Assembly: GCF_010183535.1 (NCBI RefSeq)
Contig: NW_026526124.1
Location: 62,001 to 126,000, forward strand
Direction: 5' to 3'
DNA length: 64,000 bases
Origin: Caenorhabditis remanei
Taxonomy: Eukaryota > Nematoda > Chromadorea > Rhabditida > Rhabditidae
Shown here: positions 12,164 to 12,595 of the stretch, piece after piece
How positions within the stretch are numbered: position 1 is the stretch's first letter
Layout of the letters: each line of letters opens with the position of its first letter
Notes under the pieces: model-generated
What the model was told of the DNA's origin: nothing
The model's database searches: none
Seen by the model: the letters and a program-made list of their open reading frames with translations, nothing else
Program-made: the position numbers and the translations under genes

Positions 12164-12595
12164 ATGAACAATTCTGAGTCTCCACGTCATTTTCTAAACC
12201 GCGAGTGTCCGCGGTGGGATCCGAGGAACAACATCCCGCTCGTGAACGACCGCCTGGCTTCATTCGGAAATCTATCTGTCTCCTTTTTACATCGTCCGTC
12301 TCGTGACCCAATCCTTGGGAAAATTGTGATTGAACGATTCAAGTAAGTAATTCATTTTATATGTAAAGTTTTCATCTCATTTTGTGTTTGCAGTGCGATG
12401 GACGCCTACTTCTGGTATCGTCGATGCAAGAAGTGGATGTCAATCGAGGACTACTTCCTTGTGCATTATGGGTACGATGTCCGATACCCTAAGGGCTACG
12501 TATGCCGTTTGCTGCCGGCCGAGTACGAAGAGGGCGACTGTGAGGTTACCTCTGATAATCTCTTCCCCCTAGAGGTTTTGTTAATTAACCATTAA
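12164..12595 (+). CDS. Antisense PAZ-domain-like protein (126 residues) inside element 2
   Basis: Exon 1 is 12164-12342, the intron 12343-12393 (GTAAGT to TTTGCAG), exon 2 12394-12595; total 381 nt. The second half resembles the PAZ fold of Argonaute/Piwi proteins: GKIVIERFN (52-60) matches the first strand; SIEDYFLVHYGYDVRYP (76-92) has the spacing of the Argonaute motif containing the two tyrosines that contact the RNA 3' end (here Tyr80 and Tyr85); FPLEVLLI (117-124) matches the closing LPxEVxxI strand. The insertion that forms one wall of the binding cleft is much reduced. There are no N, MID or Piwi domains. A role as a small-RNA decoy or silencing suppressor is inference. Homology is by eye only. 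Confidence 0.58.

What the first reader, a model, noticed from the sequence alone, without database searches (positions are those of the whole stretch)
12164..12595. A retrotransposon that appears to carry a stand-alone PAZ domain on its antisense strand
The two-exon gene keeps frame across a 51-nt intron and encodes 126 residues whose second half follows the PAZ pattern: GKIVIERFN, then DYF-x3-Y with RYP at the Argonaute spacing (Tyr80, Tyr85, Tyr91), then FPLEVLLI. PAZ binds small-RNA 3' ends. Lacking MID and Piwi, it could sequester siRNA or piRNA-class guides or compete with host Argonautes, protecting the element from silencing. A PAZ-only protein encoded by an LTR element is not something I know to be described. 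Seen: gene structure and motif. Known: PAZ function. Inferred: suppressor role.
Basis: partly seen in the sequence, partly recalled or inferred. Interest (0 to 1): 0.92.

Follow-up and report, generated by a model that had tools for sequence, protein, structure and literature searches.

The report
PAZ-only gene in worm retrotransposon
A virus-like jumping gene of the worm Caenorhabditis remanei carries, on its opposite strand, a small gene for just the PAZ domain, the part of Argonaute that holds the 3' end of guide RNAs; an unrelated kind of transposon in these worms carries one too, so such elements may blunt the small-RNA defence aimed at them.

The parts
12164..12342 (+). PAZ gene, exon 1 (59 codons + 2 nt)
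12343..12393 (+). PAZ gene, 51-nt GT-AG intron (phase 2)
   Evidence: an intron at the same alignment place and phase in L055, L022 and L023
12394..12595 (+). PAZ gene, exon 2 with stop; holds Tyr80, Tyr85 and the FPLEV end
12945..12960 (.). palindrome AATAAATGTATTTATT after the PAZ gene, a possible poly(A) signal for both strands (inference)
   Evidence: exact in 3 of 9 loci compared (window, L063, one copy in L057)
11312..11862 (+). second antisense gene, small membrane protein of about 166 aa; intron about 11440-11489, donor not certain
   Evidence: four donors leave it open; relatives
11272..11278 (+). TATAAAA 40 nt before the ATG of the second antisense gene
   Evidence: TATAAAA stands 41-44 nt before the PAZ ATG in L022, L023 and L068, but not before the window PAZ gene
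13296..13760 (-). sense open frame, 155 aa, two CCHC-like knuckles by eye (no Pfam zinc hit)
13832..22729 (-). Gag-Pol-Env open frame, 2966 aa
   Evidence: pieces: DUF1759, RVT_1, Peptidase_A17, Integrase_H2C2, Phlebovirus_G2
10527..11033 (-). 3' LTR
22994..23500 (-). 5' LTR, identical to the 3' LTR
10522..10526 (.). target-site duplication CCGAT, left copy
23501..23505 (.). target-site duplication CCGAT, right copy

Best explanation
The gene is a stand-alone PAZ domain, derived from an Argonaute-like protein, that an envelope-bearing BEL/Pao element carries as an accessory gene on its antisense strand. Shown: PAZ homology by profile, no further domain in the product, position inside the element, purifying selection between copies, presence in diverged sister elements. 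Inferred: antisense transcription and splicing, binding of the 3' ends of guide RNAs or of their duplex precursors, and competition with host Argonautes or Dicer that weakens silencing of the element. Because sense and antisense genes share the stretch of the genomic RNA, the element may make double-stranded RNA, which would give it a need for such a factor.
For: BEL-type profile (6 sequences) against 10 PAZ domains of this genome: score 64.8; 200 column shuffles mean 9.9, maximum 16.4; reversed 8.9. Tyr80, Tyr85 and Phe66 fall on Tyr, Tyr and Phe of the Argonaute PAZ and are invariant in the 5 sequences of A1. dS 0.248 against dN 0.033 between window and L063, dS 0.162 against dN 0.017 between L022 and L023. 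Sister elements at C2:4.94 Mb and C4:1.13 Mb keep an intact homologue with the intron in place. Mavericks carry another PAZ-only gene whose model matches Argonaute and Piwi PAZ. Antisilencing proteins encoded by transposons are known in plants (VANC; start of abstract).
Against: Single-sequence Pfam scores are below the cut-off in all 9 BEL-type sequences scanned, and 3 of the 9 have no PAZ hit at all. The BEL model is poor. L022 and L023 have His and Trp in place of the two tyrosines, and P0005 lacks Tyr80. An element of the same LTR family has only Gag-Pol, so the gene is dispensable. No TATAAAA stands within 160 nt of the window PAZ ATG. Intron and some flanks are more alike than the exons between window and L063, so those two copies may be recombinants, which blurs the selection estimate. 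No transcription, binding or silencing evidence.
Confidence: 0.5

Rival explanations
1. A real PAZ domain that serves the element's own replication, for example handling RNA or cDNA 3' ends, the tRNA primer or packaging, and not the suppression of host silencing.
For: Kept under selection inside the element beside a sense frame with zinc knuckles.
Against: A sibling with Gag-Pol alone has LTRs 99.8% identical to the window's, so the gene is not needed for copying; Mavericks, which replicate in another way, carry one too.
Confidence: 0.2
2. The PAZ fold is used as a protein decoy that binds partners of Argonaute or Dicer and does not bind RNA ends.
For: The pocket tyrosines are replaced by His and Trp in L022 and L023 while the fold's other marks and the reading frame are kept under selection.
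Against: Window, L055 and L068 keep both tyrosines, and in Mavericks Tyr106, Lys110 and Tyr111 are invariant in 8 of 8 sequences.
Confidence: 0.17
3. A captured host gene fragment carried as a passenger without a role for the element.
For: Many copies are decayed, and some copies lie in loci where no BEL protein match was found (L055-L057, L060, L062).
Against: dN/dS of 0.13 and 0.10 with 5 of 14 copies intact as read; kept in element lineages whose envelope is only 73% identical.
Confidence: 0.08
4. Not a PAZ domain; the resemblance is chance.
For: Single-sequence scores are below cut-off; no PDB chain matches the single sequence, and the A1 profile's only PDB hit is an unrelated ubiquitin-like protein at E 0.96.
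Against: Profile comparison with shuffled and reversed controls; two sister-lineage proteins alone, L022 and L068, still score 39.8.
Confidence: 0.03

Closest known systems
PAZ domain (Pfam PF02170) of Argonaute, Piwi and Dicer proteins
   Same: Profile similarity over residues 18-126, including the Phe and two Tyr of the 3'-end pocket and the PLEV end
   Different: Stands alone, with no N, MID or Piwi part; encoded by a mobile element on its antisense strand; single sequences stay under Pfam's cut-off
PAZ-only gene of Caenorhabditis Mavericks (described here)
   Same: Lone PAZ domain of 126-145 aa in most members, in a mobile element
   Different: Three exons, between capsid-like and protease genes of a DNA transposon; BEL and Maverick profiles score only 25 against each other
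VANC anti-silencing proteins of Arabidopsis VANDAL transposons (PMC5735166; start of abstract)
   Same: Transposon-encoded proteins that counter silencing (for the gene here this is inferred)
   Different: VANCs are sequence-specific and act against epigenetic silencing; no PAZ domain is mentioned in the part seen
Viral suppressors of RNA silencing (recalled, no call)
   Same: Proposed mode of action: take guide RNAs or their duplexes away from Argonaute
   Different: I recall none made of a lone PAZ domain
Antisense genes of complex retroviruses such as HBZ of HTLV-1 (recalled, no call)
   Same: Spliced accessory gene read antisense from the 3' end of a retroelement
   Different: Unrelated protein and proposed function

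Membership tests
PAZ domain | Homology to PAZ by profile-profile comparison | tested here: met
   Score 64.8 against a maximum of 16.4 in 200 shuffles
PAZ domain | Single-sequence score over Pfam's curated cut-off (a practical threshold, not a biological definition; formal Pfam membership is therefore not claimed) | tested here: not met
   14.1 bits against 28.8; best BEL-type sequence 22.3
PAZ domain | PAZ fold of the BEL protein | tested here: inconclusive
   pLDDT 43.9 from 6 sequences; no fold search run on it
PAZ domain | PAZ fold of the Maverick protein | tested here: met
PAZ domain | Aromatic pocket for RNA 3' ends | tested here: inconclusive
   Kept in the window (Phe66, Tyr80, Tyr85), replaced by His and Trp in L022 and L023; pocket positions recalled
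PAZ domain | Binds RNA 3' ends | not testable with these tools
   needs a binding assay
Argonaute | MID and Piwi domains joined to PAZ | tested here: not met
   126-aa product with no other Pfam match; neighbouring frames show no Piwi match
BEL/Pao LTR retrotransposon | LTRs, short target duplication, RT and Pao peptidase | tested here: met
BEL/Pao LTR retrotransposon | Envelope of phlebovirus type (the env-bearing branch) | tested here: met
   Phlebovirus_G2 E 4.9e-67
Maverick/Polinton (second carrier) | rve integrase, double jelly-roll capsid, adenovirus-type protease | tested here: met
   L058: 5.5e-9, 7e-5 (capsid below cut-off), 1.3e-4; L059: protease 2e-4; L054 by eye only
Maverick/Polinton (second carrier) | Protein-primed DNA polymerase B and terminal inverted repeats | not tested
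   outside the stretches read
Suppressor of RNA silencing | Loss of silencing when the protein is expressed | not testable with these tools
   inference only

The most novel reading that the evidence does not exclude
Two unrelated classes of mobile element in Caenorhabditis, envelope-bearing BEL retroelements and Mavericks, separately took the PAZ domain out of an Argonaute and keep it as a guide-RNA decoy: a class of element-encoded silencing suppressor built from the host's own guide-binding domain.
Probability: 0.35. Interest if true: 0.95.

Novelty: new variant of a known kind. Interest (0 to 1): 0.82.

Why it matters
Worms silence transposons with piRNAs and siRNAs, yet some elements stay active. 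An element-encoded PAZ domain would be a direct counter-measure made from the host's own machinery. Its carriage by two unrelated element classes makes the idea testable in a genetic model, and would show how the guide-holding domain works when taken out of Argonaute.

Tried and rejected
AlphaFold on the BEL protein failed (pLDDT 43.9), so no fold search was run on it. PDB sequence searches with the single protein (no hit) and with A1 (one unrelated hit at E 0.96) found no PAZ chain; with the Maverick family 11 of 12 hits are Argonautes (best E 0.011). The idea that all PAZ-like short frames in this genome belong to one element family was dropped when L054, L058 and L059 proved to be Mavericks. 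Separate capture by the two classes rests only on a weak BEL-Maverick profile score (25.1) beside their scores to the PAZ profile (54.6 and 47.4, all); no tree was built. Two weak matches at C4:3.06 Mb (E 0.139) were not read. Synonymous sites are saturated in the comparisons of the window with L055, L022, L061 and L056, so no ratio is given for those. Papers: searches listed no PAZ-only or element-encoded PAZ protein by title and start of abstract; searches matched 2,105, 51 and 65 papers, of which 20, 20 and 12 were listed; one search was swamped by a short term (10 listed). Passages only were read in PMC10680173 and PMC11071308; the latter holds no 'PAZ' or 'Argonaute'. The 2023 nematode Polinton paper (doi 10.1093/molbev/msad274) is not held and may describe the Maverick gene. 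One search, for pocket residues, gave nothing useful, so those positions are recalled. Searches failed through my own coordinates.

Full report
What is there. The window is part of contig C76 of a 130-Mb genome; the deposited proteins on contigs of the same lengths are named Caenorhabditis remanei. Between 10527 and 23500 lies a 12,974-bp LTR element on the minus strand. Its LTRs are identical (508 columns, no mismatch; 507 nt by the inverted TGTCG/CGACA ends) and CCGAT flanks both sides, so the insertion is recent. One open frame of 2966 aa, searched in pieces, holds DUF1759 (3.2e-15), RVT_1 (5.2e-10), Pao Peptidase_A17 (1.9e-52), an integrase zinc domain (9.6e-6) and a Phlebovirus_G2 fusion domain (4.9e-67): an envelope-bearing BEL/Pao element.

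The gene. On the plus strand, antisense to the element, exons 12164-12342 and 12394-12595 join over a 51-nt GT-AG intron into 126 codons and a stop. A second antisense gene (about 11312-11862; four donor sites leave it open) encodes a small membrane protein, and a sense frame at 13296-13760 has two CCHC-like knuckles by eye (no Pfam zinc hit).

Is it PAZ? Singly the evidence is weak: Pfam PAZ at E 0.045, 14.1 bits against a cut-off of 28.8. Of nine BEL-type sequences scanned, six have PAZ as best family (E 1.4e-4 to 0.045), two have no hit (P0002, L022) and one has another weak hit (P0005); none passes the cut-off. P0006 was not scanned. For the profile test I used six BEL-type sequences (window, P0001, L055, L022, L068, and P0003 without its first 13 residues) and ten PAZ domains that I chose from the 30 loci (L024-L030, L032, L034, L037). 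The score is 64.8 (probability 97, E 1.1e-10 for one pair) against a mean of 9.9, sd 1.9 and maximum of 16.4 in 200 column shuffles, and 8.9 for the reversed profile; with another setting of the aligner the same pair scored 54.6. The window sequence alone scores 31.5, L022 and L068 together 39.8. The alignment starts at residue 18 and runs through Phe66, Tyr80 and Tyr85 to the FPLEV end. Tyr80 and Tyr85 fall on the two tyrosines that hold the RNA 3' end in human Ago1 (positions recalled). The AlphaFold model of the 94% identical P0001, from six sequences, is unreliable (pLDDT 43.9), so the fold of the BEL protein is not shown.

Copies and selection. In this genome I found 14 BEL-type copies: window, L063, L061, L056, three in L057, L055, L060, L062, L022, L023, L020, L068. 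Five are intact in both exons as read (window, L063, L055, L022, L023). L020, L060, L062 and parts of L057 are decayed, L056 lacks exon 1, and L061 and L068 have uncertain first exons. Window against L063: 17.5 of 83 synonymous and 9.5 of 295 nonsynonymous sites differ (dS 0.248, dN 0.033; Fisher p 1.7e-6 on rounded counts). L022 against L023: 15 of 103.2 and 6 of 349.8 (dS 0.162, dN 0.017). Ratios of 0.13 and 0.10 point to purifying selection. A caution: between window and L063 the two introns and the stretch before the second antisense gene are 99-100% alike while the PAZ exons are 93% alike, so the copies may be mosaics.

Place in the element family. A 400-aa piece of the envelope finds relatives at 73% identity at C2:4.94 Mb (frame of 2974 aa) and C4:1.13 Mb (frame of 920 aa). 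Both have matches to the zinc-knuckle frame and the antisense membrane gene, and an intact antisense PAZ homologue with an intron of 49 or 46 nt at the same place and TATAAAA 44 nt before its ATG. L068 (C1:14.06 Mb) is a third lineage (Pfam PAZ E 0.025). Not every relative has it: none was seen in the stretches read in L066, L067 and L069 (4.0, 3.6 and 1.8 kb), and L065, with LTRs 99.8% identical to the window's, has a Gag-Pol frame of 2201 aa and no match to 11230-16193. The gene is accessory.

How it may work. The best reading is an accessory factor that holds guide RNA 3' ends, or the overhangs of their precursors, and so competes with host Argonautes or Dicer. For it speak the part of Argonaute that was kept, selection, and carriage by two element classes that share a host defence but not a way of replicating. 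Antisense genes inside the genomic RNA could make double-stranded RNA, a reason to need such a factor (inference). Roles in the element's own particles, or as a protein decoy, are not excluded: L022 and L023 have His and Trp in place of the tyrosines.

Novelty. UniRef already calls P0001, P0002, P0006 and P0015 'PAZ domain-containing protein', so the domain call itself is not new. Its place in mobile elements did not appear in the listings, which cover open-licence papers only and were partly capped; the most relevant Maverick paper was not held. Mavericks are known to carry host-derived cargo genes in nematodes (passage in PMC10680173), and transposon-encoded anti-silencing proteins are known in plants. 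I rate it a new variant of a known kind.

Noticed in passing
L054:4701-5500, L058:4501-5300, L059:4801-5600; about 44 places: A three-exon PAZ-only gene in Mavericks, between capsid-like and protease-like frames; relatives in C. brenneri, C. nigoni and C. tropicalis.
   Followed up: partly
window 11312-11862 (+): Second antisense gene for a small membrane protein with a conserved Cys-rich start; matches in several sister elements, also in L067 and L069 where no PAZ gene was seen.
   Followed up: partly
window 13296-13760 (-): Separate sense frame with two CCHC-like knuckles after the envelope gene, present in sister elements and nearly identical (443 of 446 nt) between window and L063.
   Followed up: partly
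window 12343-12393 and 11442-11490 against L063: Both introns are identical between window and L063 although the PAZ exons differ at 7% of sites; mosaic history or constraint, unexplained.
   Followed up: no
window 12945-12960: Palindrome AATAAATGTATTTATT between the convergent PAZ and sense genes, exact in 3 of 9 loci compared; it reads AATAAA on both strands.
   Followed up: partly
L065 (C6:18906700-18914800): Sibling element without envelope and antisense genes, Gag-Pol frame of 2201 aa, LTRs 99.8% identical to the window's.
   Followed up: partly
L056 and L057 (C1:14.50-14.53 Mb): A cluster of at least four PAZ-like copies, mostly decayed, in loci with no BEL protein match.
   Followed up: partly
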